DNA of 64,000 nucleotides. Source: Hexactinellida sp. DTS-2022. Its lineage: Eukaryota; Porifera; Hexactinellida. Positions 6,101-64,000 of this stretch are shown one piece after another (positions within the stretch are counted from its first letter, which is position 1; each line of letters opens with the position of its first letter). The position numbers and the translations under genes were made by a program. The stretch spans positions 434,001-498,000 of the forward strand of contig JAPNXP010000004.1 in the NCBI GenBank assembly GCA_028753945.1, written 5' to 3'. A model generated the notes under the pieces. It was not told the origin of the DNA. It saw only the letters and a list, made by a program, of their open reading frames with translations, and ran no database searches.

Positions 6101-9100
6101 TGTGTATTCAGGCACTGAGAAAGGTAAGTTTTTCCCAAACTTTGAAATTGACCTTTAGAAAGTAAGCCTGGGCTTTTAGTATTGGAAAAATCTGAACTCT
6201 ACAAAGCTCAGCTCTATATAAGCATTCTCAATATTAAATTAAATTAAACTAAAATCTAACAATTACAATTACAATACTACTGTGTCTTTATTAATTAAAA
6301 ACAGCATCAGGGAATTTTTTATTTCGCATCCCACAATATTGGTTAGCTACTCATATAAATAGACTGAAACAAACAAACTAACAAACAGACGAACAAACAA
6401 TCTAACAAACAAATTAACAAACTAATAAACAAACAAACTAACTAACTAACAAATAAACAAACAAATAAATAAATAAACAAACAAACAAACAAACAAACAA
6501 ATAAACAAACAAATAAATAAACATACAAACAAATAAACTAACAAACAAACAAACAAACAAACAAACAAACAACCAAATGTTACTAGTTATTATTGTTAAC
6601 GAATATTAGATATGCATTATGTACAAGACTTTGTTGAGCTAATAGAGGAGCTCCCTGAAGACGTAGTAAGCAAGCTAAAAAGAATTAAAGAGTTGGACCA
6701 GGAAGTACAAACTTCTCTCAGAAATATTCGCAAAAGGGAAACGATTTATTTCGCAGAAGCAAGCGAAAAGAGTGAAGAAGAGAGAAAATACGAATCTGAA
6801 AAGATTTTAAAACAATATGACGAAGTCGCGAAAATTGGAAACGAAAAAGTTAAAATAGCCGCAGATTTAGAAAGCATGGTGTCACAGTATTACAAGAAAC
6901 TCGAAAGTGATCTCGACAAGTTTAAGAGAGAATTAGAAGCGGAGACTCCAGGAATAACAGACAAACTCGAGCGCAAGAAACACACTGACCCAGAAATATC
7001 TATTATAGATGACTGGACAGGAAGATTTTCAGAATCAAACAGCCCTGGAATTGAAAGGCAAGAACAAACGCGATTTGAACCTGTTTCAAACATATTCGAT
7101 GAACCTTTCCCTTATGAGCACGACAAATCTCTAACAGACTTAGATCTAATGGAACACGAGGTGTTAATAAACGCACCACAAAACATGGAAGAGATAAACA
7201 TAGTGCCTCGACCCGGACAAACTATAGAATGGCTGCCACATAGAATAGATCCAAACGAGCCGACTTACTGTACGTGTAATCAGGTGTCATATGGAGAAAT
7301 GGTGGGGTGTGACAACCAAAAGTGTCCCATTGAGTGGTTCCACTATGCGTGTGTCGGTATTAAAGAGCCGCCAACTGGGAACTGGTATTGCCCACTGTGT
7401 AGAAGCGTTAAGAAACAACGGGAGAATGTGACAACAGACTAACTGTAATGTTATGTGTTATCGGACTATGGATAAACAAGTTTATGATTTGGTAAATTGA
7501 AATTAACTACGTACTACTGTAGAACCTCGTTAGTACGAACATCAGGGGACCTTCTAAATACGTTCGCCTTATCCGGAATTCGTATTATAAACCAATATCA
7601 TTTGTATTGAAAAGGCTTTGAAGGGGATTCGTATTAAACAGAATTTCGTATTAAAATCGAGGTTCTATTCATATTCACCGATTACCAAACATATTTAAGT
7701 AAATAAGATTTATAGGCAGAGCTTACCCATGTGCTACATAATACAATAACGACAACAACAATAATTCTGAAATATGTATATACCAGGGATTGGTAATTAA
7801 TGATTTTCGAGAAATTTAATTTAATTAAAGAAATTTCGTCATTTCAGATAGTAAAAGTCATTTAATTCAATTGATTTTGATTTTAGTTAAAAAATCATTG
7901 TGTTTATAATCCCTGGAATTAAGAGTGTGTTTACCTTTAGATCTGTTGGTTATAGAATTACTATTGATAGAAGACTCTCTCTTCTAGAAAACAACAACAA
8001 CAATGAGATTAAGAAATTTAATAATCAATACAATCTATAAGTACGTACGTATATTTATACGTGTTTGGGTAATAAAGAATATTTATTATAAACATTCACT
8101 CCGCTTAATTGGGTTACTTTAAATTTCGACCTAATTAACCAAAATATTGAAAACCAAACTGTAATTCCGCTATGTAAATCTGTATAAACTTGACCCAATT
8201 AACCGGAGTATATATAATAGTACCTTTTGAGGTATTTCCTTTTCTCTGATAGGAACACCAGTACAGTAAGAAATATTATTCTGGCATTTCTTATGTAACC
8301 GCATATAACAGATCTCACATTTCAATTCGTTCTTTATCATACCTAGATAGATACGAGATAGTAGATTGACCTCAAATATAGGTCAGGAAACATTAAGGTC
8401 ACTTTAGTTTTTCATTTAATTTAATTACATAGTTTGGTGCAGGGGTTTATCTAGGAATTTTATTGGCCGGCACTTTTTTATAGAAGTTAAATTTTTATGG
8501 CACCCTAAAGGTGTCAGCCATAATACATAATCGGTATAATTCAATGATGGGCATTATTTGAAGGAGGTTAATATGTACGGTACCCAGACAGGGATTTATC
8601 CACTAATTTCTATGCCAAAAAATCTTGTCAGAGAGCTGGCACCAAATTAAGTGCAAACCCGGTACCTAAATGGAATCACAAATCAAGCACTTTTGCACTT
8701 CAAGCGATTGCACATTAATATATTGGACCGTTAAAACGTTACGCAACGCAAAATTCCCAAAAATTAGACACCCCTCCCTATATCACATTATGACGTAATT
8801 ACATACTTAGCTGCTCATTGCAGTAGTCGCATCTTTTGAATTTCTTGTAGTTGAATGAGATCAGCTGATGCAGTCTCTCCGTGCTGTCCGTCTGTCCCTG
8901 CAGCGAGAGAGGCAGCGAGCCCGTGTCCGAAGAGAAGCTGGACATGTCGAGCATGTCGAATAGCTCCGTCTAGTTCAGAGTGTAAACAGACATGTAAATA
9001 AAGTGTAAATAAAGTGTAATCAAACATGTAAACAAACGTGCAAACAAGAGTGTAAACAAGAGTGTAAACAAAGTAAATAGAAGTGTAAACAAGTCTAAAG

Positions 9101-12100: not shown

Positions 12101-15100
12101 TAAATGTAAAAAAACAGCATCAAAAGGTGAATTTTGATGTTAAAAAATTACTTTCTTTATTGGCCGATGTATAAGTAATTCCTATAAATTAATACCTTTA
12201 GTATAGGTTTAACGTTTGGTGAAATCATTTTAGAATGGTTTTCTGAATATTCCTTGTAGAGCTATAGAAATAGTAATAGCAACTGTTATAACAAAATAGA
12301 TACATCTAAAGGGACATTTTGAGTTCAGTTAAAAGTATATAAACCAAATTATAGTAGACTCTGGTTAATACAAAAAATAATAATGCGAATTGGTTAAGGA
12401 GTACAAGGTTTAATCCCTTAGCCTATACAAATGCATTCAAAAATGACTCCGGTTAATACAGACTGATTTTTACGGTCCCCTGATATTCACAATAACGAGA
12501 GTATACAATATTTACTATAATTCTATATAATAATAGTATATACCCTTTGATTTTCATCTTTCTGTCTGCTTAAATCAAAAGAAAACTCTTCTCGCGTTTG
12601 AAACACCTGTAATTATGATTATAATCGATTTGTGAGCAACAAATGCATGGAAATTATAATTTATTGAATTCAGTCAGTTTAATAAAATGCCATACTCTTT
12701 ATAAATAAGTAAATAATTAACTTAGCTTTTTTCTAATACTAAATTCAGGCACTTAGAAAGGTCATGTTTTGTCAGTTATCAAATTTATGTAACATTAATT
12801 TGTGATTTAGGCGTATGGAAATTGAATCAGACCAGATTAGGAGCGTACAGTAGATGTCGGATATAAGCACACCGGTTATAAGAACATATCGGATATAAGC
12901 ACACTATGTTGGAAAACGGTTGCCATATACCCTGTATAATTTATGTCGGTTATAAGCACATTAAGTGCAGTTCCCGACGATGTGCTTATAACCGGCATCC
13001 ACTGTATTACAAATGGCTGTATAATACATTAGTGTTCTGTAACTAAAAATGCCTTTTTAAGTAATTCCCTCTTCTGAGTCGCTAACGTCTTTAAGGGAAC
13101 AGATATTCTATCTTTTAGAGTGTGCGCGAACTCTTGATAGGCCAGGGATTGCTGCTCAACTTCTCCAACCAAAGATTCCCAGTAGCTGAACAGCGAGGCC
13201 GCACAGAAGTATCTATAAACCATCCGATTATAGAAAGTATAATACAGTATAATCTCGTTATAATAGATTTGTAAATTACAACCGAGTGAGATATTTGTGT
13301 ACAAATGTTATCACATAGTAACGTTTGAATATAGTAAACTCTCGTTAATTCGAACACCAACGGACAGTAAAATTTGTTCGCTTTATCGGCAGTTCGTATT
13401 AACCGGAGTAATAACCATTGAATAGCCATTGTAGGGACCTGATTTGGTGGAACTGTTTGTTCGTCTTATCCGTAAATCCGTATTAACCGTGTTCGTACTA
13501 ACGAAGTTCGACTGTAGATTTGTAAATACAATTGAGTGGGATATTTGTGTACAAATGTTATCACAAAGTAATGTTTGAAATACAGTAAACTCTCATTGAT
13601 AAGGCCAAATATCGGTTAAATATTAGGTTATTTCCCCTAGTCTATACAAATGCATGCAAGTGACTCCAGTTAATACGAATTCCCGGATAATAGGATCAAA
13701 TTTCGACGGTCCCTTTGTGTTCATATTAATGAGTATCTACTGTACTTATAAATCAGCCTGAATCTTTCCCAATGTAATTTTCAGGCACTGACTGGTAAGG
13801 TCATTTTTAACATCAAAAATTCACCTTTGCGAAGCCGTGTTTTACATTAAAATATGTCAACCGATTTATAAACAAACCCAATAATAATTACAGAATTGTA
13901 TTTAATGCATCAACTCACTTCTCCCGCTTAATATCGTTATTCTTCAAAATGAATTGCTTAACGAGTCCATGAAGACTCTTTGAATAGTTCTCATTTAGTT
14001 CTGATAATTTCTTGAAGAAATCACTCACTAATAAAAATAGATTAAATTCAATATACTATTACAGATAAGATATAATAGAGTATATTATTTTATTACTACT
14101 AAAATAATACACGATTGGTTAAGTACTAATTAGAAATTGCCACTGTTAAAAGTACAGTCAAAATCTGTTATTTCGAACTCTCAAGGGAAAAAATAAATTT
14201 GGTCGAATTTAGCGGATATTCGAATTTTTTAAACGAGTATTGAAATTAACGGATGTTGACTGTACTAACGAGGTATAATAGTAATTATATTTATAATATT
14301 CTTCGTTTGTCAATCACAGAGAAAACAACCTCAATTAATATCAATTCCATTGAAAACTAGCTAATTTATCTATCCATAGTCCAATCAATCTAGCTTATAA
14401 TTAAACAGAATTATTATTAATACTCAGCTCAGGGAACTTTGAATCAAAGAAAAACTACAAATTTGTTCTTTCAATTAATTAAGGAATGGTAGTACATATC
14501 TATAACCTTGAGTATTAAAGAAAGAAATACTGAGAACTCTCGTCATAATGAAGTCCAAGGGAAGCGGAGTAAATCAATTACTTTATCCGTCTGGGGAATA
14601 TATATAACTTCGTTATAACTAGAAGTAATACTTTTACATTTCCCCAAATCTTAACAATCAATTAGTATTAAGTTACTATTAACGGAATTTAGTATCTCCA
14701 TCCATTTACTATAATTTGTCCGAATTGGTGTACTATAAAAGAAATAACTAATTAATAATAAAATATAGTGAACTCTCGTTATAACGAAGTGCTTGGGACC
14801 TGTAAATCTTCGTTATATTATATCCGGATATTCGTTATAAGCGGATAATAATTAATGCATATTCGTTATACAGTAGATGCCGGATATAAGAACATGTCGG
14901 TTATAAGAACATTTATATGCAGTTCCCGACGATGTTCTTATTACCGTATCCACTGTATCCGACTTGGTTATAACGGGAGTTTACTGTATTTATAATAAGA
15001 GCATCCTTATATGTAGATGGTCTATTTCTAGACGGATACCGACAATTCGCACCACGACAATTCGCACCCGACAATTCGCACCGCGACAATTCGCACCACG

Positions 15101-18100
15101 ACAATTCGCACCAACGACAATTCGCACCAACGACAATTCGCACCACGACAATTCGCACCTAATTTGATTGGCCAATTTAATGGCACAATAAATATTTAAT
15201 TGCATTTAGAACAAACGTTAGATAAATGCATTGAACAAATTTTAGATAAATGAATTTTAAGACTATTCTTTATTGGTTTCATAGTTGCTAGCTAAATTAT
15301 ATTTAAGAAATGTTATCCAGTTATGATCTAGTGAATTAGAATACGTATTGATTATTGTTTTGGAATTGTTTTCAAATATACGGAAAGTACAAAAGAAAAA
15401 CCTTAAAGTGATTACCCAAACATTTTGAATCAATTACGTAAATTCTATTAGATCAAGTTGAATTAAGAATACGTATTGATTATTGTTTTGGAATTGTTTT
15501 CAAATATACGAAGTACAAAGACAAACCGTTAGTCAAAGTGATTATGATTACCCAAAACATTTTGATTCCATTACGTAAATTCTATTAGATAAAGTTATTC
15601 TAAATTTAACTTTTTCAATCTAGATTATATCTTTGAGACTTTTTAATTCAAATTAATGCTTATTTAATTAATTAATTTATACAGTTTAACTCGTTTAGCA
15701 CGTACTCTCGGATACTACAGTCGAAACCGGTTTATTCTAAGTTTCTCGGGTTATTCTAACTTATCGGTTTATTCTAACTATTAGTAATGCAATCATTTGT
15801 AAGAAATTCCAATTTTACTTGTATTTTTCATCGGTTTTTTCTAATTATCGGTTTTTTCTTATTATTTTTATCTGAAAAGAAATGGTTAGAAAAAACTGGT
15901 TTCAACTGTACTTACTGTTCTCGAATAACCGATCTTTTTCCCTATCTGATCCATTATAAATGATTCGTTAATACGTAGTCGGATAAGACGTATCAATTTA
16001 TATTACCAAGTAAATAAAATGTATTCATCTTAATTCGGTTAGTTCGTACTCTATAAAACTATCAGCGGAACTCAGTTAGTATTTGATTTAAGTGAGTAGC
16101 TGACAACTAAAATACTTTAATCTTATCGTTAAAAGTACGGTATGTTAAAGACTTGAATATCTTACATCGTATTCATATCATTGAACACAGTATTCGACTT
16201 GTACCTCGGTTAGTACGTACTTTTTCTTGTTTCCCAGGTGGTACGTCTTAACCGAGTTCTACGGCAAATCAAAAGTACAATTTTTGTGTGTTTGTCCAGA
16301 ATTAATAGGAAAGACCACAAGCTCTAGAAATCTGAAAATTTGCATGCAGGGGTAATTTTACACGCTGACAACGATCTATGGGGTTTCTAAACGAAATAAC
16401 GGGATTATGACCTTATAAAGGCACATATTTGGGAATAACTCTTTCAGTTTTTAGCCGATTCGCCCTCAATTTTAGATGGCAACACAGCATACAATGAGAC
16501 ATACGTTACCGATTTATGGGTACAAGGCGTCAAGTGGGAACTAATTAGTATGTGACATTTAAAATTAGATACCATTGTATGTTTCTTTAAATTCACTGTA
16601 CATATTGAAGTTTGGTGATTTACCTGCTGGCTCCACCTGCATGATTTCAGTTTAGTTACTTAGTTCTATTAGTGATTTATTAATGAATAGCATACAGTCA
16701 CGCGGATACACCAGGCACGTCCATAAACTGTAACATTACTTCATTAATCCGAACGGATTAACTAATCGGAACAGATTTTTTTGAATCAGAACACCGCTGC
16801 TCGGATTAGGGTAACTAACTAACATAGTTCAAATTCCTTGAGGACAATAATTAATCCCTGTCAGTTATTCATTTCGCTTAAGAGTTTAAATAGTATATTA
16901 GAATGATTTAATAAATACATTTTACAACAAACATAAAATAATGATATAATTATAACAAAATAGATAAAAATTAATGAATATTTGATTAATTAAGTTGGAG
17001 AATTTAAGTTGATAGTTGTAGGATTAAATAGAGAATTAAGTTGATAGTTGTAGAGTTATGTAGAAGAATTAAGTTGGAGAATTAAGTTGATAGTTGTAGA
17101 GTTATGTAGAAGAATTAAGTTGGAGAATTAAGTTGATAGTTGTAGAGTTATGTAGAAGAATTAATTTGTTTAGTGTAAAGTTAATATATAGTTAAGTTAA
17201 GTTGTCGTATGCTGGTGGAGAGAGATGTAGGTGCAGCTACCACTTCTTGACCTCTGTCCTTGCTTCTTTGGTAGCTGCACCTGATGGAGAGGAGAGAGAG
17301 GAGAGGGTGGCAATGGCTTTTTGAAAAGAGGGAGGAATGCAATACAAGAGTTCACACCCAAGGTACGGAGAAAGTGAAGCGCACGAATGAGCACCTCCAC
17401 ACCCCTGACGAGCAGGCAGTGAGCTGCTGTGAGACCAAGATAGGCATCAAGAGGCGGGCACGGGAGTCGCAGGACAGCTCGCACCACATAGTGGGGGAGA
17501 GTATGGTGACGGTATCTGAGGGCACGGCTGTTAAGCTACCCAAGCTGGACAGCCTGAAGCGGACGATACAGCGCCAGCGCGTGCAGCAGCTGGCAGCCCC
17601 GGTGCAGCCTGCCGGTCTGGAGGAGCTGGTGCTACCGGCAGAGTACCAGCAGACAGCCAAGGGGGAGCAGTTCCTCCTCTACGATTCGGGACCGGAGACG
17701 CAGAGGATCCTCATCTTCGGGACACAGCGAAACCTGGAGATGCTGCGACTGTCGGGCTACTGGATGGCTGACGGCACCTTCAAGACGGCTCCCTCCCTCT
17801 TCGCTCAGGTGTATGTGGTGCATGCACTCCGTGGAGGACCTCAAGTCATGCGGGATGGTCACCTGCTGCCGAGTCTGTTCGTGCTGCTGCCCAACAAGAC
17901 GGAGGCTACCTACAGGAGGATGTGGGAGCAGATTCGCCTACTCTGTCCCCTTGCCCAGCCGAGGGGGATGCTCTTGGACTTCGAGAAGGCTGCGATTAAC
18001 AGCTTTGAGGCGGTGTGGCCGGACACACCGGTCAAGTGCTGCTTCTTCCACCTCACGCAGAACGTATGGCGCAAGGTGCAGGCTGCTGGCCTGCAGGCTG

Positions 18101-21100
18101 CCTACAGCCAGGACGAGGAGCTGGCTATGCGCATCCGACACCTCCCAGCTCTCGCGTTCGCCCCGATCACGGATGTGCCCGGCCTGTTTGCAGCTGTAGC
18201 GACGCTGCTCCCGATGCCAGAGGCCGCCGAGCTGATCCTGTACTTCGAGGGGACCTACATCGGGCGTACTCTCCCAGGCGGCACATACCAGGCGCCGCTG
18301 TTCCCTATCGACCTCTGGAACTACCACATGGAGACGCCCTTCGGACTGCCTCGGACCACCAACGCCGTGGAGGCCTGGCACCGCAGCTTTAACGCCACTG
18401 TTGGCTGCCACCACCCTACCATATGGAAGTTCATAGCTGCCCTGAAGCGGGAGCAGGGCCTTGTGGAGGTGCGGCAGGCTAAGTTCACCGCAGGAGCGGC
18501 GCCCACCAAGCGGAGGAGCGCACAGGCTAACGAGGAGAAGCTGACTAACCTAGCAACCAGCTATTATGACCGCACTAGAATAGAGTTCCTAAGAGTCGTA
18601 GCACACCAATTCAGTAGAGAGGGATTAACAGCCTAGTGATAGGTATTAATCCGCTCCCAAACTGAAATGATGTGCTACTCCTCTCAAGAACTCTATACGA
18701 CTACGACTATAATAACTGGTGACTAGATTAACCAGCTTCTTCTCGTTAGCCTGTGCGCTCCTCCGCTTGGTGGGCGCCGCTCCTGCGGTGAACTTAGCCT
18801 GCCGCACCTCCACAAGGCCCTGCTCCCGCTTCAGGGCAGCTATGAACTTCCATATGGTAGGGTGGTGGCAGCCAACAGTGGCGTTAAAGCTGCGGTGCCA
18901 GGCCTCCACGGCGTTGGTGGTCCGAGGCAGTCCGAAGGGCGTCTCCATGTGGTAGTTCCAGAGGTCGATAGGGAACAGCGGCGCCTGGTATGTGCCGCCT
19001 GGGAGAGTACGCCCGATGTAGGTCCCCTCGAAGTACAGGATCAGCTCGGCGGCCTCTGGCATCGGGAGCAGCGTCGCTACAGCTGCAAACAGGGCGGGCA
19101 CATCCGTGAGCGGGGCGAACGCGAGAGCTGGGAGGTGTCGGATGCGCATAGCCAGCTCCTCGTCCTGGCTGTAGGCAGCCTGCAGGCCAGCAGCCTGCAC
19201 CTTGCGCCATACGTTCTGCGTGAGGTGGAAGAAGCAGCACTTGACCGGTGTGTCCGGCCACACCGCCTCAAAGCTGTTAATCGCAGCCTTCTCGAAGTCC
19301 AAGAGCATCCCCCTCGGCTGGGCAAGGGGACAGAGTAGGCGAATCTGCTCCCACATCCTCCTGTAGGTAGCCTCCGTCTTGTTGGGCAGCAGCACGAACA
19401 GACTCGGCAGCAGGTGACCATCCCGCATGACTTGAGGTCCTCCACGGAGTGCATGCACCACATACACCTGAGCGAAGAGGGAGGGAGCCGTCTTGAAGGT
19501 GCCGTCAGCCATCCAGTAGCCCGACAGTCGCAGCATCTCCAGGTTTCGCTGTGTCCCGAAGATGAGGATCCTCTGCGTCTCCGGTCCCGAATCGTAGAGG
19601 AGGAACTGCTCCCCCTTGGCTGTCTGCTGGTACTCTGCCGGTAGCACCAGCTCCTCCAGACCGGCAGGCTGCACCGGGGCTGCCAGCTGCTGCACGCGCT
19701 GGCGCTGTATCGTCCGCTTCAGGCTGTCCAGCTTGGGTAGCTTAACAGCCGTGCCCTCAGATACCGTCACCATACTCTCCCCCACTATGTGGTGCGAGCT
19801 GTCCTGCGACTCCCGTGCCCGCCTCTTGATGCCTATCTTGGTCTCACAGCAGCTCACTGCCTGCTCGTCAGGGGCGTGGAGGTGCTCATTCGTGCGCTTC
19901 ACTATCTCCGTACCTTGTGTATGAACTCTTGCGTTGCAAACCCCTCTCTTCTCGCAAAGCCAATGCGTCACCTCTCCTGCTCTCCTCTGTATCCCATATA
20001 TATAGCCTCTCTCCACCAGCTTGCTTCCTCCTCTCTGCGACTTAATCAGCCTAAAAGGCTGATTAAGAGGCTCTTCCATGCCGCTTTAGTCTTGTTGTTG
20101 TTGGGGCCAATAAAAATATATTTGTGTATAATGTTTGATAATTAAATTAAGATTTATTTTTTATACTTAGGGCGTGCCTATTTTAATAATAACAGGTGAC
20201 TCGTACGCCTTTGAAAACTTTTGAAGTTTAAGAACAATACAATTTTAAGAACAATACAATTCAGCTGCTATACTTCCATCTCTACATCCTGTTTACTTTT
20301 CGAAAATATTATATCGATTCATAATTTACTTTATTCAAAGAGTCAACTGTAAACCTATATATCACCTTCCTGAGAACAATGCTTTCAAAGAGTGGCAAGT
20401 TAAATTTAGATTTTCGCAAATTAATCAAGTAAGAATCCATAATATAAAATTAAAATTGGGATTAAGTAGTTGGCCAATCAAATTAGGTGCGAATTGTCGT
20501 GGTGCGAATTGTCGTGGTGCGAATTGTCGTGGTGCGAATTGTCGTTGGTGCGAATTGTCGTGGTGCGAATTGTCGGGTGCGAATTGTCGTGGTGCGAATT
20601 GTCGGACTTCCATTTCTAGACGGTCTTAAAAGCCCATACAAAATAAGCCAAAAATTTGTAGGCTGTCTATAAATTCTATAGACCAAAAGCCCCTGCCGTC
20701 TATGGGTAATACTATTGTATATATAAGAAAACTGGTATAGAAATAGACGGTATACATCAGGGAATTATCCAGGAGCGTGAGATGCTCCTTTTCGAGTATG
20801 ATTTTAAGAAAAAAATCAATTAGGAGCGCGAAAAATTGGAATCTTCTCCTATACCGTACATTAATTTATGATTTAGGCGTATGAAAATTGGATCAGACCA
20901 GGATTAGGAGCGTATTTGCAAATGGCTGTATAATACACTGGTCTACATATAATATATTTCTTATAATAATTACCTGATTCAGCGAATTTTATAGACAACA
21001 GAGCGTGTCCTCTAGTGCTATCGACTTTATGCGGAATATCCCTCAGCAATTGCCCGCTCGCTTCGTCCAGTATTGAGACTGGTCTCGGATTGTGGGACCT

Positions 21101-40279: not shown

Positions 40280-43200
40280 ATGTCAACTACAGTCAACCAA
40301 ACTATCCACCTGTCAGGCGACACAAACAGCGACCCTATCCCACTAACAAGTTCTAATGTGTCTGTTCACTGTTCGAACCAACCCACCACGCCCCCTCAGC
40401 TAGGCGGCAGTCTACAGATAAAGTCGGTCGCAAGCAACAGAGTGCAAGTACAAACACTCGCGAATCAACAATGGGACTTGAAACGCCTAACAGACAATCT
40501 TATTTGTGAAAATGATAATTTCTTCGCTTATATTCTTCATGGCAAGAATGGTTGCTTAGTAAGATTGATACACAAACAAAGCGAGCAGAGAGAACTTATA
40601 AAAACATTTACAAGCACGGTTGTTGACTTAGTATTCGTCCATACTGCATGTGATGTAATAGCTTGTCTCGAGTTATCTGGCAATATTACGGTTTGGTCGC
40701 TACAATACAAAGACCAAACACAAACAGATGGAGATTCAAACTTGTCTGCTTCAACTAAACCTGATTCTATCAGTATTGAATTAATGCTGAAAATAATACG
40801 CCCTCAACCCGAGCTTTATGTCTCATTACGTATCGTTTGGTGTAATATCCCATTCACTACCAAAGAGTCTACGGAATCTCTCAAAACAAACCATGGATAC
40901 TCGAATTATTTCTGTGTTACACTCAATGATAAATGCGAAGTATGGAATTTGGAAAAAGCTATTGAGATACAAAAAAATTTCGGAAAAGGCTTCATTTCTT
41001 CAGAAGACACTAACGCATGCGTTCCAATTGTAAACACGCATAATGGGAATATCCTCGATGTCGCATTCAGTCCGAACGAAGCGTATCTAGCCACCTGTGG
41101 AGAGGATGGCGCCGTAAAGTGCTGGTCGATTGAAAAAAACAAATGCGTACACAAACTTAATCCTCATGAAGGAAACGAGGTTTCACAATTGAAATTTTTA
41201 GACGATCTTACTTACTCAATTCAAAGCGAAACACATACGGATAGCTTTTGGAAATTCATTCTTACCTTGTCTCGTCCCAAATGTGAGATAAAACTTTGGT
41301 CTTGTTCAGATTGGGGTTGTCTACAATCAATTTCATTTCACTCCCCCACTGCTGCCCCACCTCTCCTTCGAATAACTACACACCTTTCTTCGCGGTTTCT
41401 CGCGCTTTACGACACACAAAAGCCACTTCTATACCTCATGGAGTTTTCACGCGAATCTTCACACTTTACCACATTAGGAGAATTCACGCTTGTACAACCA
41501 ATATTATCTCTAACAATATCTTCGCTAGAAACTATTCAGCCAACTCACGAACAAGATCCTCTGTCCCTATCGAACACAGGAGATAATCTCCCAGATAAAT
41601 ACACACAAATTGTACTGCATTCGGTGCACACTAAATCTCTACAGGAACTGAGTGTATGTTACTCGCAAACAGAATTATCAGAAGATATAAGTGTTAAGTT
41701 CTCGAGTCCCATTATGCATACGCTAGAAGAAATAGAGGCTTCCCCTACCATAAGCGATTCCACCGACAGACCGCTTTCTGATATAACAGATATAACAGCT
41801 GGGGCTACTGACCTCACGAAAGATGAATCTTTATCCACTGTAAGCGAGCCGATTGAGAAATTAGACGATACAGTAGATACAGTGGATACATTAGCTGACG
41901 ATGAGATTACAATACCACCCGGCCCTGGTTCTGGGATAGAGACTATTAATAAACTGAGGAGTATACTCAATCTCCCTACACCGGAATTTTCCGCTCGTTT
42001 ACAAACACCAGAGCCAATACCAATTGAAGAGGCGTTAAAAATTGCGAACGTAGGTGCTTATAATTATTTCGCAGATGATATTCAGAAAATTGAAAAACAA
42101 GTAGAAGAAGAAATAGCGAAAAGAAATGTACCATTAGAAGATTCAATGACGAATGATTTGTTAAACGATTCGTCTGAAGTTCCTATTCCGATTTCTGAAC
42201 ATTCAGTCTTAGAGCAAAGCGAAATAAATCAAACCGAACACAGTCTAACAAATATCAATCAAGAACTGATAGAACAACGTAAATCTAATTATGAAATGCG
42301 ACGCGAAATTTCACACCTATCTCAACAAATGAAGGTATTACTGCAACAGGAATCATACCTGCTACAAACCCAAGATCACCAAATGCGAACATTATCACAG
42401 TTGGTGTCTGCACAACAACACTTAACACATAGAGTGGAATTAAATTTGAAAGCAAACGAGGCAGAACGAATGGCAGAAAAACCTCGACAAGACAATCTTA
42501 TTTCAAATATAAACTCAAATCTAAATCACATTCTAACAACTCATATTAATAACCTCCTTACAAATGAAATAAACCAAATTGTCGCTAAAGTTATTTCCGA
42601 ATCATTGGATACATTCAAAAAGTCACTACCATCTCTACTTAAAGACATAATTACAGAACAAATGAAAATAATTCAATCGAGCTTAGAAGAATTCTTAATT
42701 CAGTTATTACAGCGACAAGATGTGATTGAGAAAGTTAGTACGCAGTTAACACAAGCCATGTCAGGTACAGTTAAAGAGTCACATAAAAAAGTGTTTTTAG
42801 AAACAGCTATACCTGCGTTTGAAAAATGTTGCAAGCAAATGTTCCAACAAATGAATGACACGATTGTACGCGCTTCCCAGGAATACACCAGGGATATGCA
42901 ACAATGTGTACAAGTTATACGAGACCAAACAGAGACGGTTGTTGCTGAAAAAAAAGAAGAAAATCCTATTAGCCTAGGCAATGAAGATGTTCTACTAAAG
43001 TGTGAGCATATTGCTAATAGTATGGAACAGCTACCAACACTGGTGTGCAATGAAATACAGAGGGTTTTACACAATGAATTAGCTTCATGGTCTCAATCTC
43101 TACCTTCAACTGGGAATCATCAAGTTTCAATCGATCAGATTAAAACTGGGATCGACAAAAGTTTGGGAGAAGGTCATATTGCGCAAGCTTTCGATTTGGC

Positions 43201-43552
43201 TTTAAACGCGAATAATCTCGAAGCTGTTGAGTATATTTGTGGACAGATACAACCAGGCGAAGTTTTAGAATCAGACCCACCGATACTAAGCCAAGCGCTC
43301 CTACTATCACTAATACAACAACTCTCTTTTGACCTCTCATCCAACCTACAAATAAAACTACGCTATTTGATAGACGCTATTCACTCTATAGATCCTACAC
43401 ACGAGCATGCTGGACAAGTATTACGCGATCTCTTACAAACTCTAACACAAACTTCAAACCAACTGGGATCAGCTGAGCCAAACAGTGTACATCTGTCTAA
43501 AGTTAATTGGCTGTTGAAATATGTGAAAAAGACAGTTGATAGTTTGGATTGA
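40280..43552 (+). CDS. EDC4: Enhancer of mRNA-decapping protein 4 (EDC4/Ge-1), intronless
   Basis: A single open frame of 1090 codons. The N-terminal 430 residues carry a WD40-type beta-propeller, best seen as HNGNILDVAFSPNEAYLATC with GEDGAVKCWSI (about residues 253-286). A Ser/Thr- and Asp-rich linker (about 430-640) follows, then helical coiled-coil sequence (about 650-960, with a QQMKVLLQQESYLLQTQ region). The C-terminal helical domain includes LGEGHIAQAFDLALNANNLE and ILSQALLLSLIQQLSFDLSS, which match the conserved EDC4 C-terminus. EDC4 scaffolds DCP2-DCP1 in cytoplasmic P-bodies and stimulates decapping. The protein is shorter than human EDC4 (about 1400 residues), mainly in the linker. 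The lack of introns is unusual for this family. Confidence 0.92.
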   Translation: MSTTVNQTIHLSGDTNSDPIPLTSSNVSVHCSNQPTTPPQLGGSLQIKSVASNRVQVQTLANQQWDLKRLTDNLICENDNFFAYILHGKNGCLVRLIHKQSEQRELIKTFTSTVVDLVFVHTACDVIACLELSGNITVWSLQYKDQTQTDGDSNLSASTKPDSISIELMLKIIRPQPELYVSLRIVWCNIPFTTKESTESLKTNHGYSNYFCVTLNDKCEVWNLEKAIEIQKNFGKGFISSEDTNACVPIVNTHNGNILDVAFSPNEAYLATCGEDGAVKCWSIEKNKCVHKLNPHEGNEVSQLKFLDDLTYSIQSETHTDSFWKFILTLSRPKCEIKLWSCSDWGCLQSISFHSPTAAPPLLRITTHLSSRFLALYDTQKPLLYLMEFSRESSHFTTLGEFTLVQPILSLTISSLETIQPTHEQDPLSLSNTGDNLPDKYTQIVLHSVHTKSLQELSVCYSQTELSEDISVKFSSPIMHTLEEIEASPTISDSTDRPLSDITDITAGATDLTKDESLSTVSEPIEKLDDTVDTVDTLADDEITIPPGPGSGIETINKLRSILNLPTPEFSARLQTPEPIPIEEALKIANVGAYNYFADDIQKIEKQVEEEIAKRNVPLEDSMTNDLLNDSSEVPIPISEHSVLEQSEINQTEHSLTNINQELIEQRKSNYEMRREISHLSQQMKVLLQQESYLLQTQDHQMRTLSQLVSAQQHLTHRVELNLKANEAERMAEKPRQDNLISNINSNLNHILTTHINNLLTNEINQIVAKVISESLDTFKKSLPSLLKDIITEQMKIIQSSLEEFLIQLLQRQDVIEKVSTQLTQAMSGTVKESHKKVFLETAIPAFEKCCKQMFQQMNDTIVRASQEYTRDMQQCVQVIRDQTETVVAEKKEENPISLGNEDVLLKCEHIANSMEQLPTLVCNEIQRVLHNELASWSQSLPSTGNHQVSIDQIKTGIDKSLGEGHIAQAFDLALNANNLEAVEYICGQIQPGEVLESDPPILSQALLLSLIQQLSFDLSSNLQIKLRYLIDAIHSIDPTHEHAGQVLRDLLQTLTQTSNQLGSAEPNSVHLSKVNWLLKYVKKTVDSLD

Positions 43553-45924: not shown

Positions 45925-47538
45925 TTACAATTTCTTCCCGTAAAAATTAGATTTCGTTGAGAACTTGTAAATTAATTCTGCCAAAAAATCAGTAATTGCA
46001 TCACACTCCACCGAATATTCTTCAGCCGTTTGTTTCAGTATCTCTACTTGAGTAGGATCTGGATATGATAACTTATTCCTTGAAACACTCAGCTTCTTTA
46101 ACTGAGGTAATGTAGGAATGAGATGAATGAAATGCACACAAGAAGTTGAGTCGAGTACACAACAACTCATTTCTATATCCTTAATAACAGGACTATAAGC
46201 TAAGCCATCACACAGTGTATACACTTCTGATGATGACAATGGGATATCAAAGAGGTGTAATCTGATTAATGACTGTAGATAATCGACAGATGTATTCCTG
46301 GACATAACATCATTATTAACAATTGATAAAATGAGAGCGTCCCTGATCTCTAGCTCTATTAGCTTATTACAATGCTGTATAGGGGCTAGTATACTATCCC
46401 AGCTGTTAATTCCTATAGTGGATAAACGGCTTAACTTTATTCCTCTCAGAGTACTGTTCCTATTGATTAGGTGTATGAGAATATCTCCATAGGATTCATG
46501 ATGAAGTATTTTACCAGTTGGCTGTATAGCTAGATATGTTAGGTTACAGAGGGACTGTAGCTGAGGTAGACATGAGTAGGGATCTGGTATCTCCAGATGT
46601 ATCTCTTGTAGCGAAGAGTGGAGTGAAAGTATGAACGGGGATATATCAAATGATGAATCCAATAAAAACAATCCGATACTAGGTTTATAGCGTGTTAGTA
46701 ATTCGGAGACTGACCAGTCAGGTCGACTATCATAATAATAACAAAAGTAGTCAATGGAAGAGAAATTACTAATCAGATTTGTAGTACATACCTTAGATAG
46801 TTCGGTATAGAGTATACTCAGAGACCCAGTGAATTGATTGGCTTGAGGAGGGAATAGGATATCTGAATACTTAGTGAGATGACACTTATTTAGTCCAATA
46901 CTAATCTTAATATGAGCTGGCATAATAGAGGAGATAATGCTGGTATAAGATAGGATTGTAGAAGCGTCTTTGGTTTGAAATGTTAAAGCAAGATAGTTGA
47001 GACTGCATTGGTCTATTCGTGATATGAGAGAATGGAACTGCTCAGTGGAGATATAATCCACATCAATGAATATTATCTGAATATGTGGCAGGTGTGGCAA
47101 TGATAGTAGGAATGTGTACCACTCATTTGGAGAGACAGCTGATACAAAGTAGAAGTGCAAGGGTTCAGGTAGGATATGCTTAACATGGTTAAGTAGCGAG
47201 GGAACTGGTTTTGATTCGAAAATTGTAGGAATCAACTCAAGCAATGCGGATGAAAATTCTAACCAATTTGATAAATGTAGAAATTTATTTGAACTTTTGT
47301 AGAACTCAAATTGGAGCTCATAACCCAGTTGATAAAACATAGGAATGTCTTTGACCGTATAAGGAATTAGTTTCTTGCAGAGGATTGATTGCATAGCTAT
47401 AGATCTGTCGCACAGGATGCCACACACGAATCGAATTACCATTCTAAACATGACAAATAACTCATTAGAGGATACGAGGTAGCGAATGATCAAACATTGC
47501 TGAGTCCATTTCTGGTAACTAAGCCAGAGTGCGGACAT
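45925..47538 (-). CDS. NLR, C-terminal part (helical end of NACHT module and LRR-like repeats)
   Basis: This frame continues the upstream NACHT frame codon for codon, with only TAA and TTC between the last Gln of the upstream frame and this ATG. It starts MSALWLSYQKW, the normal continuation of the LTxQEF segment that closes the NACHT-associated winged-helix/superhelical region of NLRs. Residues about 120-537 contain LRR-like repeats with leucine spacing, for example LTYLAIQPTG, LRGIKLSRLS, LIELEIRDA, LIRLHLFDIPL and LKKLSVSRNKL. The ATG at the start is probably an internal methionine of the ancestral gene. It might be translated only by readthrough or not at all. Confidence 0.75.
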   Translation of the reverse strand: MSALWLSYQKWTQQCLIIRYLVSSNELFVMFRMVIRFVCGILCDRSIAMQSILCKKLIPYTVKDIPMFYQLGYELQFEFYKSSNKFLHLSNWLEFSSALLELIPTIFESKPVPSLLNHVKHILPEPLHFYFVSAVSPNEWYTFLLSLPHLPHIQIIFIDVDYISTEQFHSLISRIDQCSLNYLALTFQTKDASTILSYTSIISSIMPAHIKISIGLNKCHLTKYSDILFPPQANQFTGSLSILYTELSKVCTTNLISNFSSIDYFCYYYDSRPDWSVSELLTRYKPSIGLFLLDSSFDISPFILSLHSSLQEIHLEIPDPYSCLPQLQSLCNLTYLAIQPTGKILHHESYGDILIHLINRNSTLRGIKLSRLSTIGINSWDSILAPIQHCNKLIELEIRDALILSIVNNDVMSRNTSVDYLQSLIRLHLFDIPLSSSEVYTLCDGLAYSPVIKDIEMSCCVLDSTSCVHFIHLIPTLPQLKKLSVSRNKLSYPDPTQVEILKQTAEEYSVECDAITDFLAELIYKFSTKSNFYGKKL

Positions 47539-47541
47539 GAA

Positions 47542-49416
47542 TTATTGCAGTGTTAAGTGTGCGTATACCCACACCTTAACTCGACCCACAAACTTAAGCA
47601 CCACGAAGTGCTCTTGCATTAATCCCAGTCTCTCACACTGGTATTGCTTTTCTCCCAAACACAGAGTGACATCGTCCTTACAGACGAGCTCTCTGTCATA
47701 TATTCCCTTATAGGCTTCCTGCCCAATGGCACTGATGGATTCTTTTATTTCTGGGGCGAAGTCACTGATGCGGGACACTTTAATGTACCTCTTTAGTCCC
47801 ATTCTGTGCAGCTGTCTCCTCACCATATAGGTTATGAGCTCTTGATACACGTCTGTTACTGTCTGGGCTAGTATATCTTCTGTGTCGTTGAATAGAGCAG
47901 TGAACAGACTTGCATTAACAGGTACCAGGGCCAGGAGGTTCAGCTCTTCGTGTCTCTGGAATAACTTTTGTGTTTCTTCCAGTTTGGATTCAGTTGTCAT
48001 TCTCTTTGTGAAGTATGCATCTCGGTTCTCTGGCGAGAATCCTAGGACCTGATAATGTTTGTTAATTTTCATTTCATTCCCGAATTGTGTGAATACGTTT
48101 GACCAAGCCCCTGGTCTGCTGGTGAGTAGGATTGTAGCGCTAGGAAGAATTCTCTTTTGAAGGAGGAGGTAAAGTAGTGTGGTATCAAATGGGACAGTCT
48201 TAATAAACTCGTCGAGTCCGTCTATGATCAAGAGGAGACTCTCCCCTCCTGTCCTCATTAGGTATCTTGTCAGGGACTCTGCCCATCCCACGCCGAGTGG
48301 CAGACTGATGCGCAGCCATCTGCGTATGTATTTGTTGATCTCTTTGTCTTCCTGTCTGGCCACCTCTATCTCATGCCATTCTGTGTCTCTGCAGGGAATG
48401 CACAGGAGATACTGGAAGTTCTCTATATCATCCATCCCGTAGTTGTACCCTGCGTATTTGCAAAGGAAGGTCTTGCCGCAACCTGGATTCCCTATTAGCG
48501 TCCATACTTCTGGTTCCTCAGTTCTACAATAGGTAAGATGAGATTCAAAGTCAACTATCCCAGATTCTCCTTCACATACATTCTTTTGTGTATCTTTAGA
48601 CACTTCCGTTTCATACCTCCATTGTTCTTTGTTCATTTTTCTCAGGAATTCTATCTCATTAACGGTGGTCTCTTCTTCTGGTTTAATTCTACCAGTTTCT
48701 TGCGTTATGACAGTGAGTGGAGTATACACGGATTCCAATGCAACCATTTCTCTGTCCAGTATAACGCTAACTTCTTTGTGCTGCAATAGCATATACTCCC
48801 TCAGTTTCCTCATCCATTGGGGATGGTTATCTTCCTCTTCGTATTCTATCTCTGACAAGAGTTTTGTTTTAAATTCCTCTTCGCTTAAACCTTCGAATAC
48901 GGATGCATAGTTTTGGATTTTCGGTACCAAATCGTCTCTTTCTATTTCTGTCATGACGTCACACAACACAGATAGATCTTTAGTGACTATTCCTTCTTGG
49001 ATGCAGCAATTCAGTATCTCTTCTGTGTTTTGGCTCTTTGTAATATCATATGCGATTGTTCTCCAGTCATTCACTGCAATATCTCGTAACAGAGTTATGA
49101 ACGTGTGCGCTGTCTTCTTTTCTGTTGCGACCTGCTGTGTGGCTGATGCGTTTAGCCAAGGTATCTTCTTGGCTAGAGATAACAATTCTCTGTTGTTTAT
49201 CTGTTCGAGTACTCGCATGAACTCTTTGGGGTTAAATTCCTCCCAATCTTTCAACTGATGAATCAATTCAATGCCTGGTTCGTTGCTTGCTTTCACTGTT
49301 TCGATTATTCGAGTTGGAATCGGAAGCAAAACTTGGATTTTCTCGATGTCGTTACGGGTTAATTCTTTCGATAATTGCTTCATAGCGGCCCTTACTCCTT
49401 TCACGTACTTGGCCAT
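47542..49416 (-). CDS. NLR, N-terminal part: tandem DED-like domains plus NACHT NTPase
   Basis: Intronless, 624 residues. Two helical death-fold-like units occupy about 1-95 and 100-190. Each ends in a similar motif (LEQINNRELLSLAKKI; MTEIERDDLVPKIQNY), which fits death-effector domains. The NACHT domain has Walker A GNPGCGKT at 309-316, Walker B LLLIIDGLDEF at 394-404 and sensor ILLTSRPGAW. It stops at a TAA immediately after AHLTLQ, where the family has Glu-Phe. NLRs detect microbial or damage cues in the cytosol, and DEDs typically recruit caspase-8/FADD-type partners. Without LRRs the product might be constitutively active, dominant-negative or unstable. Confidence 0.88.
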   Translation of the reverse strand: MAKYVKGVRAAMKQLSKELTRNDIEKIQVLLPIPTRIIETVKASNEPGIELIHQLKDWEEFNPKEFMRVLEQINNRELLSLAKKIPWLNASATQQVATEKKTAHTFITLLRDIAVNDWRTIAYDITKSQNTEEILNCCIQEGIVTKDLSVLCDVMTEIERDDLVPKIQNYASVFEGLSEEEFKTKLLSEIEYEEEDNHPQWMRKLREYMLLQHKEVSVILDREMVALESVYTPLTVITQETGRIKPEEETTVNEIEFLRKMNKEQWRYETEVSKDTQKNVCEGESGIVDFESHLTYCRTEEPEVWTLIGNPGCGKTFLCKYAGYNYGMDDIENFQYLLCIPCRDTEWHEIEVARQEDKEINKYIRRWLRISLPLGVGWAESLTRYLMRTGGESLLLIIDGLDEFIKTVPFDTTLLYLLLQKRILPSATILLTSRPGAWSNVFTQFGNEMKINKHYQVLGFSPENRDAYFTKRMTTESKLEETQKLFQRHEELNLLALVPVNASLFTALFNDTEDILAQTVTDVYQELITYMVRRQLHRMGLKRYIKVSRISDFAPEIKESISAIGQEAYKGIYDRELVCKDDVTLCLGEKQYQCERLGLMQEHFVVLKFVGRVKVWVYAHLTLQ

Positions 49417-62449: not shown

Positions 62450-62533
62450 GGCCTGTTGTATGACAGTTCTACTACCGAATTACTACCTCTATTACTATTA
62501 CCATGGATGTTCTCTATCCATGACAGAATTACT

Positions 62534-62728
62534 GGGAGTATGACAACTCGCATCACGACAATTCGCAACACGACAACTCGCAACACCGATAACTGGCAAC
62601 ACCGACAACTGGCAACGCGACAACTTGCAACAAATCTGATTGGACAATTAATGAACTCGTACAATGTTGGAATTGTCCGTTGCGAGTTGTCGTGTTGCGA
62701 ATTGTCGTGATGCGAGTTGTCGAACTCC
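62534..62728. mobile_element. Mini foldback element related to the MULE element ends
   Basis: 195 bp flanked by a perfect 10-bp duplication CAGAATTACT (62524-62533 and 62729-62738). The ends GGGAGTATGACAACTCGCAT and the inverse of GGAGTTCGACAACTCGCAT continue with units of GACAA(T/C)TCGCA(A/T)CAC, the same repeat theme as the terminal arrays of 15035-20611. It has no coding capacity and is probably mobilised by that transposase family. Confidence 0.82.
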
Positions 62729-64000
62729 CAGAATTACTACCCTTTGATCTTGACTTGACTATTACTATGCACTTTTAATGGTTTCTTTCTTTCTTCTACT
62801 TGACTAAATACAAACAGTTGTATACATAGAAAATGGTAATTCATTTATATTATTTATTCTACTCATCAATTTAAGAAAGTACACAAATTATAGTGTTGAT
62901 TCAAGAAATTACATACAATAATGAATATCTCTGAAATCTGAATATTAAAAAAAAAAGAATGTGAATTTTATTTCCCATGTAATTTTGCCGAGCGATTTAT
63001 TGAACTCAACAAAATTCGCGAGACGAAATTTTAAAATGCGTGCCTCAGGCTATCAACTTGGTGAAGTTATTGACATGATACATAGTCGTACTACAACTTT
63101 TTTTTACACAGTCAGCTTCAGTAATGCAATGATTATTGAGTAGAGCGATACGGTTTTTGACAGCTATTATATATATTCTCAGATTTCCCAATAGGTTATG
63201 TATTGTTAAATCCATTAAAAGGTCCTATTTTCGATGTTAGAATAATTATCTATTTGCTATACCGTTCACAATGCTATATGAATACGGGGAAGGCGGATAT
63301 GGAAATGTCAATTATATAGATAATTGAGCAAGTCAAATTCAATAAAATTTTTTAAGATACAAGTAAATATTTCCTATATATGAAATACATACTGTTTGTA
63401 TTTAGTCAAAGTAGAAGAAAGAAAGAAACCATTAAAAGTGCATAGTAATAGTTGATGAGAACTCAAGTCATGATCAAAGGGTAGTAATTCTGTCCTGTAA
63501 GGTAGTAAATCTGTGATGGTTACTAGTAATAGAGGTAGTATCCGTAGTAAGTCTGTCATGGTAGTAAAACTGTCATACAACTGGCCTAAATATCATAAAC
63601 TTGATAAACAACAACAACAAATTACTCAATTCAATCCGATTCAACTAACACATATTAGATAGGAATCCGCTTATGGAGTCATTATACAAAGTACGTTCTG
63701 TAACTGATATCCCATTGGTCAACTGACCAGCTCTTTCTTATAGGCAGATGTGTGTATTTATATATATAGTGAATAGGATAGTTAGTTACTGTTAATTTAT
63801 TGAATTGAAACTAAGAAATAATCTCAAAAGAAAAGAGACATCTGAAGTGTAATAATTATCGACATAACTATTGGCACACTAAGTAGCTAGTTAACACAGC
63901 AAGTGAGTTAAATTACATTATTTATGTACATAACAGATTATTGATATAATAATACAAAAATCTCTTGAAAATAATTAGGGTCCGTTCAAATGATAATTTG

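What the first reader, a model, noticed from the sequence alone, without database searches (positions are those of the whole stretch)
15035..20611. Foldback-type MULE transposon with repeat-array ends and a palindromic pair of FLYWCH-MULE transposases
The sequence shows eight-unit inverted arrays of GACAATTCGCACC at both ends, an 11-bp target duplication and two convergent, nearly identical transposase genes nine bases apart. FB-NOF of Drosophila combines repeat-built foldback ends with a MULE transposase. A cnidarian- or sponge-grade counterpart with a duplicated transposase palindrome is not something I know to be described. The repeat units may serve as multiple transposase binding sites.
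Basis: partly seen in the sequence, partly recalled or inferred. Interest (0 to 1): 0.85.

Follow-up and report, generated by a model that had tools for sequence, protein, structure and literature searches.

The report
Foldback transposon with mirrored transposase genes
This is a jumping gene of an already known type whose enzyme gene is present twice as a mirror image, and comparison with its relatives in the same genome indicates that the two mirror copies keep overwriting each other, so that the catalytic part stays identical while the edges drift apart.

Summary
The element is window 15033-20611, flanked by a 9-bp (not 11-bp) duplication, ATTTCTAGA. Each end is an 8-nt cap plus eight 13-nt units. 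Inside lie two convergent FLYWCH/MULE transposase ORFs nine bases apart: one full length (F), one (T) without the start of the zinc finger. Eleven other palindromic relatives were found in the 112-Mb genome, 8 of them with their own target duplication, so it is not an assembly artefact.

The plan matches Tm1, a Phantom-type Mutator/Foldback element of root-knot nematodes (PMC3169594, parts read). The palindrome is the new part. Over 1,100 core columns F and T do not differ in 7 of 11 elements; truncated-arm edges differ by up to 24%. Core sites group by element (9-250 against 0); inner-edge sites group by side (13-17 against 0) in three of four comparisons. One element has the same two 1-nt deletions in both arms, another has swapped inner ends. 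This indicates arm-to-arm gene conversion and crossover. Of 11 open, nearly full-length transposases of this clade 10 are palindromic; of 25 outside it none has a listed partner. A self-repair function is plausible but unproven.

The parts
15024..15032 (.). left target-site duplication ATTTCTAGA (9 bp)
15033..15040 (+). terminal cap A, CGGATACC
   Evidence: same or one-base-variant cap at one end of the palindromic relatives
15041..15159 (+). left array, eight GACAATTCGCACC units, 14-16 nt period
15160..15175 (+). inner end of the TIR, TAATTTGATTGGCCAA
   Evidence: perfect inverted partner at 20470-20485; similar inner motif in most relatives
15176..17229 (.). interior in which no ORF of 60 aa or more is listed between 15206 and 17196; direct repeats incl. 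three 46-nt units at 17031-17168
17230..17281 (+). conserved hairpin GGTGCAGCTACC...GGTAGCTGCACC directly outside the truncated arm
   Evidence: 11 places in the genome, each beside a truncated arm; folds better than shuffles, z -3.9 to -5.7 for three versions
17284..18636 (+). truncated transposase ORF (T): MULE domain intact, N-terminal half of FLYWCH missing, zinc ligand C42 replaced by F
17390..18489 (+). homogenised core of arm T (alignment columns 200-1300): 3 differences to arm F in 1100
18637..18645 (.). nine bases between the two stop codons, centre of the palindrome
18646..20079 (-). full-length transposase ORF (F), 477 aa: FLYWCH (12-68) and MULE (189-289) domains; D192, D261, C282, H285, E392 invariant in 17 sequences
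18787..19886 (-). homogenised core of arm F
20470..20485 (-). inner end of the right TIR
20486..20603 (-). right array, eight GACAATTCGCACC units
20604..20611 (-). terminal cap B, GGAAGTCC (reads GGACTTCC on +)
20612..20620 (.). right target-site duplication ATTTCTAGA

Best explanation
A potentially autonomous Mutator-superfamily cut-and-paste transposon of the Phantom/Tm1 foldback type. Shown by sequence: repeat-built composite ends, asymmetric caps, 9-bp target duplications, an intact FLYWCH+MULE transposase ORF, a palindromic second transposase copy, and arm-to-arm sharing of substitutions, deletions and inner ends that only gene conversion and crossover inside each element explain well. 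About 1.1 kb of catalytic core therefore evolves in concert, while the arm edges, the FLYWCH start, the hairpin and the TIRs evolve on their own. Inferred: the FLYWCH finger of F binds the repeated units; T, which in the window's lineage has lost a working finger, is not kept as a protein in most lineages and serves (or merely persists) as a spare template. Most likely the palindrome arose once, by inverted duplication of the gene during repair after excision, before the two palindromic subfamilies split; this last step is the least secure.
For: Ends and duplications: of 19 elements, 11 have a perfect 9-bp duplication beside the caps, 4 have 7-8 of 9, 4 have none; 0 of 306 mismatched left/right flank pairs reach 7 of 9. 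Transposase: FLYWCH E 1.2e-11, MULE 8.4e-11; candidate catalytic and zinc residues invariant in 17 sequences, several of them close copies. Conversion: core F-T differences 0 in 7 of 11 elements, 3, 4 and 2 in three more, while the same stretch differs by 7-29 between elements of one subfamily; core sites shared within the element 250, 23, 9 and 42 against 0 shared by side in four comparisons; inner-edge sites by side 17, 14 and 13 against 0 in the three close comparisons; arms pair by element in the tree for L024, L025 and L028 (starred) and L021, L023 (weaker); 69 core substitutions private to an element are in both arms, against 18 positions where arms differ. L025 has the same two 1-nt deletions in both arms; L022 has exchanged its inner ends, as a crossover would do. 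Common origin: the same outer breakpoint and hairpin in both subfamilies; one clade of both is not rejected (p-AU 0.149). Association, read from the listing: 10 of 10 open transposases with 74% identity or more that reach codon 470 have an opposite-strand partner (10 of 11 with C6:1630715, open over codons 1-455, which has none); 0 of 25 open ones below 74% have one.
Against: L022 is an exception in the core: 10 of 831 differences between its arms (five at the broken end of T), no fewer than to L020 (9-12). The L013-L016 arms group by side, not by element, in the whole-arm tree. In the best protein tree the two palindromic subfamilies are separated by relatives with no partner listed (L037/L039, L032/L036), so one origin needs losses or transfer; starred branches force at least two changes. 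Between subfamilies the inner-edge sites do not favour a shared side (1 against 10, 1 crossed), nor do the N-edge sites (2 against 9). The spare-template role is not shown: conversion follows from any long inverted repeat, and it spread frameshifts in L025. Activity is inferred from ORFs and duplications only. L015, L016 and L017 have no target duplication. One search scored 89 of 2363 candidates, so degraded partners may be missed.
Confidence: 0.85

Rival explanations
1. T is a working gene: a transposase without DNA-binding finger that dampens transposition by joining F in mixed multimers.
For: In the window's own lineage T is an open ORF with its own ATG directly after the hairpin and has lost zinc ligand C42 (4 of 4 elements L013-L016); the catalytic core is intact. 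L023T is open at its N edge too.
Against: The open core comes for free from conversion. At the N edge, where T evolves alone, the frame that leads into the core has a stop in L020T, L021T, L025T and L028T (stops also listed for L020, L021 and L028). In L024 the T arm has regained a full finger.
Confidence: 0.15
2. The palindrome is a built-in silencer: F transcripts read into T antisense, fold into a 1.3-kb hairpin RNA and feed small-RNA silencing, as proposed for Mu killer of maize.
For: In 8 of 8 subfamily-1 palindromes examined no AATAAA/ATTAAA lies between the last aligned F codon and the far end of T (first at +1152 to +1737). Mu killer has an inverted duplication of about 1.3 kb of a MULE transposase gene (PMC3440606, abstract and passages).
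Against: In subfamily 2 the first such signals lie at +622 to +732, before T (3 of 3), so F can end earlier. The palindromic elements are the ones with open transposases. Absence of the motif in GC-rich coding DNA is weak evidence. No RNA data.
Confidence: 0.2
3. Two separate elements inserted tail to tail, or an assembly artefact.
For: The palindrome looks like two half elements.
Against: One pair of ends and one target duplication enclose the whole; a short centre (33-50 nt between aligned codons) recurs in 8 elements at different places; in 8 of 12 fetched palindromes the truncated arm ends at the same hairpin, in L025 at a degenerate one; truncated-arm edges differ by up to 24%.
Confidence: 0.02
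4. The palindrome arose independently in the two subfamilies, or its truncated arm moved between them by recombination.
For: Interspersed relatives without a listed partner; different centres (33-50 nt against 1.2-1.3 kb); edge sites not shared by side between subfamilies; cores are exchanged between elements with old, different ends (N-terminal dS 0.47-1.1 against core dS 0.035-0.040).
Against: Same breakpoint at codon 30/31 beside the same hairpin, which under the exact pattern occurs nowhere else in the genome.
Confidence: 0.3

Closest known systems
Tm1 (Tm1-A), Mutator/Foldback family of Meloidogyne, Phantom subclass (PMC3169594; abstract, sections 6 and 9 and passages read)
   Same: Two different short terminal motifs, one per end; TIR of tandem units of mostly 13-15 bp in variable number; a conserved inner motif; 9-bp target duplications; FLYWCH plus MULE transposase of 496 aa (here 477); members without transposase, some MITE-like.
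   Different: Tm1-A is 2.6 kb with one transposase predicted in 7 exons; a term search of the paper for palindromes, inverted orientation and gene conversion showed no mirrored gene. Here the gene is one open frame and is mirrored. Unit, cap and inner sequences differ.
Mu killer of maize MuDR (PMC3440606; abstract and passages)
   Same: Inverted duplication of about 1.3 kb of a MULE transposase gene between two TIRs.
   Different: One silencing locus, not a family; both its TIRs come from one end (here only the arms of L017 and L024 run into the TIR); here F is intact and the palindrome is carried by 10 of 11 open transposases of the clade.
Phantom elements (Marquez and Pritham 2010; not seen, only as cited in PMC3169594 and PMC3688188 and as a group in a table of PMC6446971)
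   Same: MULE transposase, FLYWCH in some members, 8-10-bp duplications where given; tandem repeats in the ends are mentioned for them in PMC3688188.
   Different: No Phantom sequence could be compared here.
FB-NOF of Drosophila (recalled)
   Same: Repeat-built foldback ends with a MULE-type transposase.
   Different: Not compared by sequence; I recall no palindromic transposase pair for it.
Galileo of Drosophila (PMC3688188, abstract and passages)
   Same: Foldback-like ends whose tandem repeats hold further transposase binding sites, shown by binding assays.
   Different: P superfamily, THAP finger; no palindromic gene pair in the passages read.

Membership tests
Tm1/Phantom-type Mutator foldback element | 9-bp target duplications directly outside the ends | tested here: met
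   window 9/9; of 19 elements 11 with 9/9, 4 with 7-8/9, 4 none
Tm1/Phantom-type Mutator foldback element | composite TIR: terminal motif, tandem 13-15-nt units, inner motif | tested here: met
Tm1/Phantom-type Mutator foldback element | different terminal motif at each end (as in Tm1) | tested here: met
   CGGATACC / GGAAGTCC or one-base variants in the 12 palindromic elements except L015 (A at both ends); the compact relatives L030, L031, L032 have the same cap at both ends
Tm1/Phantom-type Mutator foldback element | FLYWCH finger plus MULE domain in one protein | tested here: met
   F: FLYWCH E 1.2e-11, MULE 8.4e-11. T: MULE 8.7e-13, FLYWCH 14.5 bits, below its cut-off of 23.6
Tm1/Phantom-type Mutator foldback element | catalytic DDE with C2H signature (motif assignment recalled) | tested here: met
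   D192, D261, C282/H285, E392 invariant in 17 sequences; geometry not modelled
Tm1/Phantom-type Mutator foldback element | transposase falls in the Phantom clade of a tree | not testable with these tools
   no Phantom or Tm1 protein held; no relative confirmed in viral contigs
Mu killer-like silencer | inverted duplication of the transposase gene | tested here: met
Mu killer-like silencer | both TIRs from one end | tested here: not met
   window caps differ and the palindrome arms do not include the TIRs
Mu killer-like silencer | small or antisense RNAs silence the family | not testable with these tools
   no RNA data
gene-converting palindrome | arms of one copy more alike than corresponding arms of different copies | tested here: met
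   met in the core for 9 of the 10 elements that have a same-subfamily comparison, not for L022; L028 has none
FB-NOF | NOF-type transposase between FB ends | not tested
   no NOF sequence held

The most novel reading that the evidence does not exclude
A cut-and-paste transposon that carries a mirrored copy of its catalytic core as a repair template: arm-to-arm conversion lets mutations in the transposase be erased without a partner chromosome, and the same recombination passes the core between elements with different DNA-binding fingers and ends, so that finger plus ends and catalytic core evolve as exchangeable modules. Selection for this would explain why nearly every open transposase of the clade is palindromic (10 of 11) although its two subfamilies have a core dS near 1.
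Probability: 0.35. Interest if true: 0.8.

Novelty: new variant of a known kind. Interest (0 to 1): 0.55.

Why it matters
Gene-converting palindromes are best known from mammalian sex chromosomes (recalled; the abstract start of PMC6790999, listed, says that conversion between arms is documented), where they are thought to protect genes without a recombination partner. A transposon family that keeps its transposase in such a palindrome across deeply diverged subfamilies makes that idea testable in a small, movable system. It also runs against expectation: an inverted transposase duplication is the structure of Mu killer, which silences its family, yet here it is the form of nearly all open members found.

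Tried and rejected
11-bp target duplication: rejected, it is 9 bp plus a chance CGG. Template-switch correction from the palindrome centre as the homogenising mechanism: disfavoured, because the inner arm ends next to the centre are diverged (20 of 126 in L013) while the core is not. Known RNA family at the hairpin: none up to E 1 in 301 bases. Relatives in viral contigs: 101 pattern matches, none confirmed. Palindromic elements as one clade in the core protein tree: not recovered, not rejected. Structure prediction was not run: the rule for that tool names loci from other sources than mine, and the window's two proteins alone would give a poor alignment. Promoters and introns were not analysed.

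Counts that need care: the right end of L027 was entered one base short, so its duplication shows as 1/9; from the flanks it is 8/9. L026 (nested ends) was left out; its 9/9 is. Only 2 and 3 units of L032 were parsed. L017 was left out of the arm alignment (interrupted arms); L020 and L022 have a shortened T arm, so their edge counts are incomplete, and L024 has no diverged outer edge. The 10-of-10 and 0-of-25 counts use copies without stops that start by codon 12 and reach codon 470; C6:1630715 (L029) falls short of that: open to about codon 455, core complete, no partner. In one search one flank letter of the third hairpin was mistyped; one search repeats the folds from references and is the one cited.
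Full report
Observation. The window holds eight exact GACAATTCGCACC units at 15041-15159 and eight on the other strand at 20486-20603, in two arrays of 15-nt period, and two convergent ORFs, 17284-18636 (+) and 18646-20079 (-), nine bases apart. The window lies at C13:434001-498000 of an unnamed 112.4-Mb genome in 18 contigs, so the claim could be tested against relatives.

Ends and target duplication. The unit occurs 126 times in the genome (60 forward, 66 reverse; the reversed control pattern 0). I fetched 20 loci and compared the ends. The palindromic elements end in an 8-nt cap, CGGATACC at one end and GGAAGTCC at the other (one-base variants in L023 and L028, the first cap at both ends in L015); 9-bp duplications lie directly outside. 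For the window this gives ATTTCTAGA at 15024-15032 and 20612-20620. Of 19 elements 11 have 9/9, 4 have 7 or 8 of 9, and 4 (L015, L016, L017, L032) have none; 0 of 306 mismatched flank pairs reach 7. The unit consensus is the same at both ends in 17 of 18 elements and differs by one base in the other, while units of different elements differ by 2.3 on average.

The transposase. F has FLYWCH (E 1.2e-11) and MULE (8.4e-11) domains; T keeps MULE (8.7e-13), its FLYWCH match is below the cut-off. In 17 aligned sequences D192, D261, C282, H285 and E392 and the finger residues C42, C48, H66 and H68 are invariant (their catalytic and zinc roles are recalled from the families). T has F instead of C42 in L013-L016; L023T keeps both cysteines, L021T keeps C42 only, and L024T has a whole finger again.

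The palindrome recurs. The protein search listed 92 matches, 89 of 2363 candidates having been scored. Ten copies of 74% identity or more without stops that reach codon 470 each have an opposite-strand partner close by; an eleventh, C6:1630715 (L029), is open to about codon 455 and has none. Of 25 such copies below 74% none has a partner in the list. Self-comparison showed transposase palindromes in L013-L017, L020-L025 and L028 (12 loci), compact single-gene elements of about 2.1 kb with array ends in L030-L032, and no transposase palindrome in L018, L019, L026, L027 and L029; L033-L035 hold degraded arms.

Concerted evolution. Arms F and T were aligned for 11 palindromic elements (L017 left out). 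Core columns 200-1300: no F-T difference in L014, L015, L016, L021, L023, L024 and L025; 3, 4 and 2 in L013, L020 and L028; 10 of 831 in L022, whose T arm is truncated. The same stretch differs by 7-29 between elements of one subfamily; L022 is the exception, its arms being no closer to each other than to L020. Core dS between L013 and L021, the two subfamilies, is about 1.0. Edges of truncated arms differ much more: 25 of 106 and 20 of 126 in L013. Counting sites by pattern, the core gives 0 shared by side against 250, 23, 9 and 42 shared by element; the C edge gives 17, 14 and 13 by side against 0 by element among the L013, L028 and L025 lineages, but 1 against 10 between the two subfamilies; the N edge is mixed (2:9, 2:11, 9:6, 2:13). 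In the arm tree F and T pair by element for L024, L025 and L028 with starred support and for L021 and L023 with weaker support; for L013-L016 the T arms group together. Over all 11 elements 69 private core substitutions are in both arms and 18 positions differ between arms. L025 carries the same two 1-nt deletions in both arms, and L022 has a T-like inner end on F and an F-like one on T. In L017 (99.9% over 1416 nt) and L024 (98.8% over 1913 nt) the inverted arms run on into the TIR. Together this is best explained by gene conversion and crossover between arms.

Hairpin and origin. Directly outside the truncated arm lies a 52-nt hairpin (folding z -3.9 to -5.7 in three versions). Its exact pattern occurs at 11 places in the genome, each beside a truncated arm: eight in fetched palindromes and three in L033, L034 and L035. 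L025 has a degenerate copy; L017, L022 and L024 have none. It is present in both subfamilies, at the same break at codon 30/31, which argues for one old palindrome. The protein tree places relatives without a listed partner between the subfamilies, yet a clade of both is not rejected (p-AU 0.149). I hold one origin as more likely but open.

Module exchange. Between L013 and L020 or L028 the first 68 codons have dS 0.47 and 1.10, the core 0.035 and 0.040; between L013 and L016 there is no such contrast (0.047 and 0.035). The core has thus been exchanged between elements whose fingers and ends diverged long before. Whether the palindrome helps this exchange is inference.

Function. That the palindrome is kept because it repairs the transposase is inferred from its presence in 10 of 11 open members and its long persistence; it also spread lesions in L025. 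T as a protein is unlikely in most lineages because the frame at its own N edge has stops in L020, L021, L025 and L028. Self-silencing by hairpin RNA is possible in subfamily 1, where no canonical poly(A) signal precedes the far end of T in 8 of 8 elements, less so in subfamily 2, where one does in 3 of 3.

Known relatives. Tm1 (PMC3169594) matches the anatomy closely except for the palindrome. Mu killer (PMC3440606) is the nearest inverted duplication of a MULE transposase, of similar size, but is a single silencing locus. Galileo supports repeated units as binding sites by experiment (PMC3688188). My searches listed no paper whose title or abstract start describes a palindromic transposase pair kept by conversion; most subscription papers are not held.

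Limits. One genome, one haplotype, unnamed host, no expression data, no reads.

Noticed in passing
window 62534-62729: A 196-bp miniature foldback relative: inverted GACAACTCGCATC/GACAATTCGCAAC units, caps GGGAGTAT/GGGAGTTC, flanked by the 9-bp duplication AGAATTACT (62525-62533, 62730-62738).
   Followed up: partly
L022 and L016: In L022 F and T have exchanged inner ends, as expected from a crossover between the palindrome arms; L016 inner ends are mosaic.
   Followed up: yes
L025: The same two single-base deletions sit in both arms, so lesions spread by conversion too.
   Followed up: yes
L013, L014, L016 against L020-L023, L025, L028: The full-length gene faces cap B in the window's group but cap A in the others, and L015 has cap A at both ends; recombination between the inverted end arrays would explain it.
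   Followed up: partly
L018 (C1:13633500-13638500): A 3.3-kb member with the same ends and no transposase match; two stretches (915 and 290 nt) 99% identical to L016 suggest a deletion derivative.
   Followed up: partly
L020, L022, L025, L027 interiors; L015 at 2-586: Pieces of a second, distant MULE transposase (35-42% identity) inside or beside these elements.
   Followed up: no
L032 (C15:3391900-3400500), 977-1020: A lone end array of the window's type lies about 1.6 kb before a compact single-gene relative.
   Followed up: no
window 45925-49416 (-): Two adjoining ORFs that look by eye like an NACHT ATPase and a leucine-rich-repeat part of one NLR gene (assignment recalled, not searched).
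   Followed up: no
window 6612-7442 (+) and 40280-43552 (+): ORFs that look by eye like an ING-type PHD finger protein and an EDC4-like WD40/coiled-coil protein (recalled, not searched).
   Followed up: no
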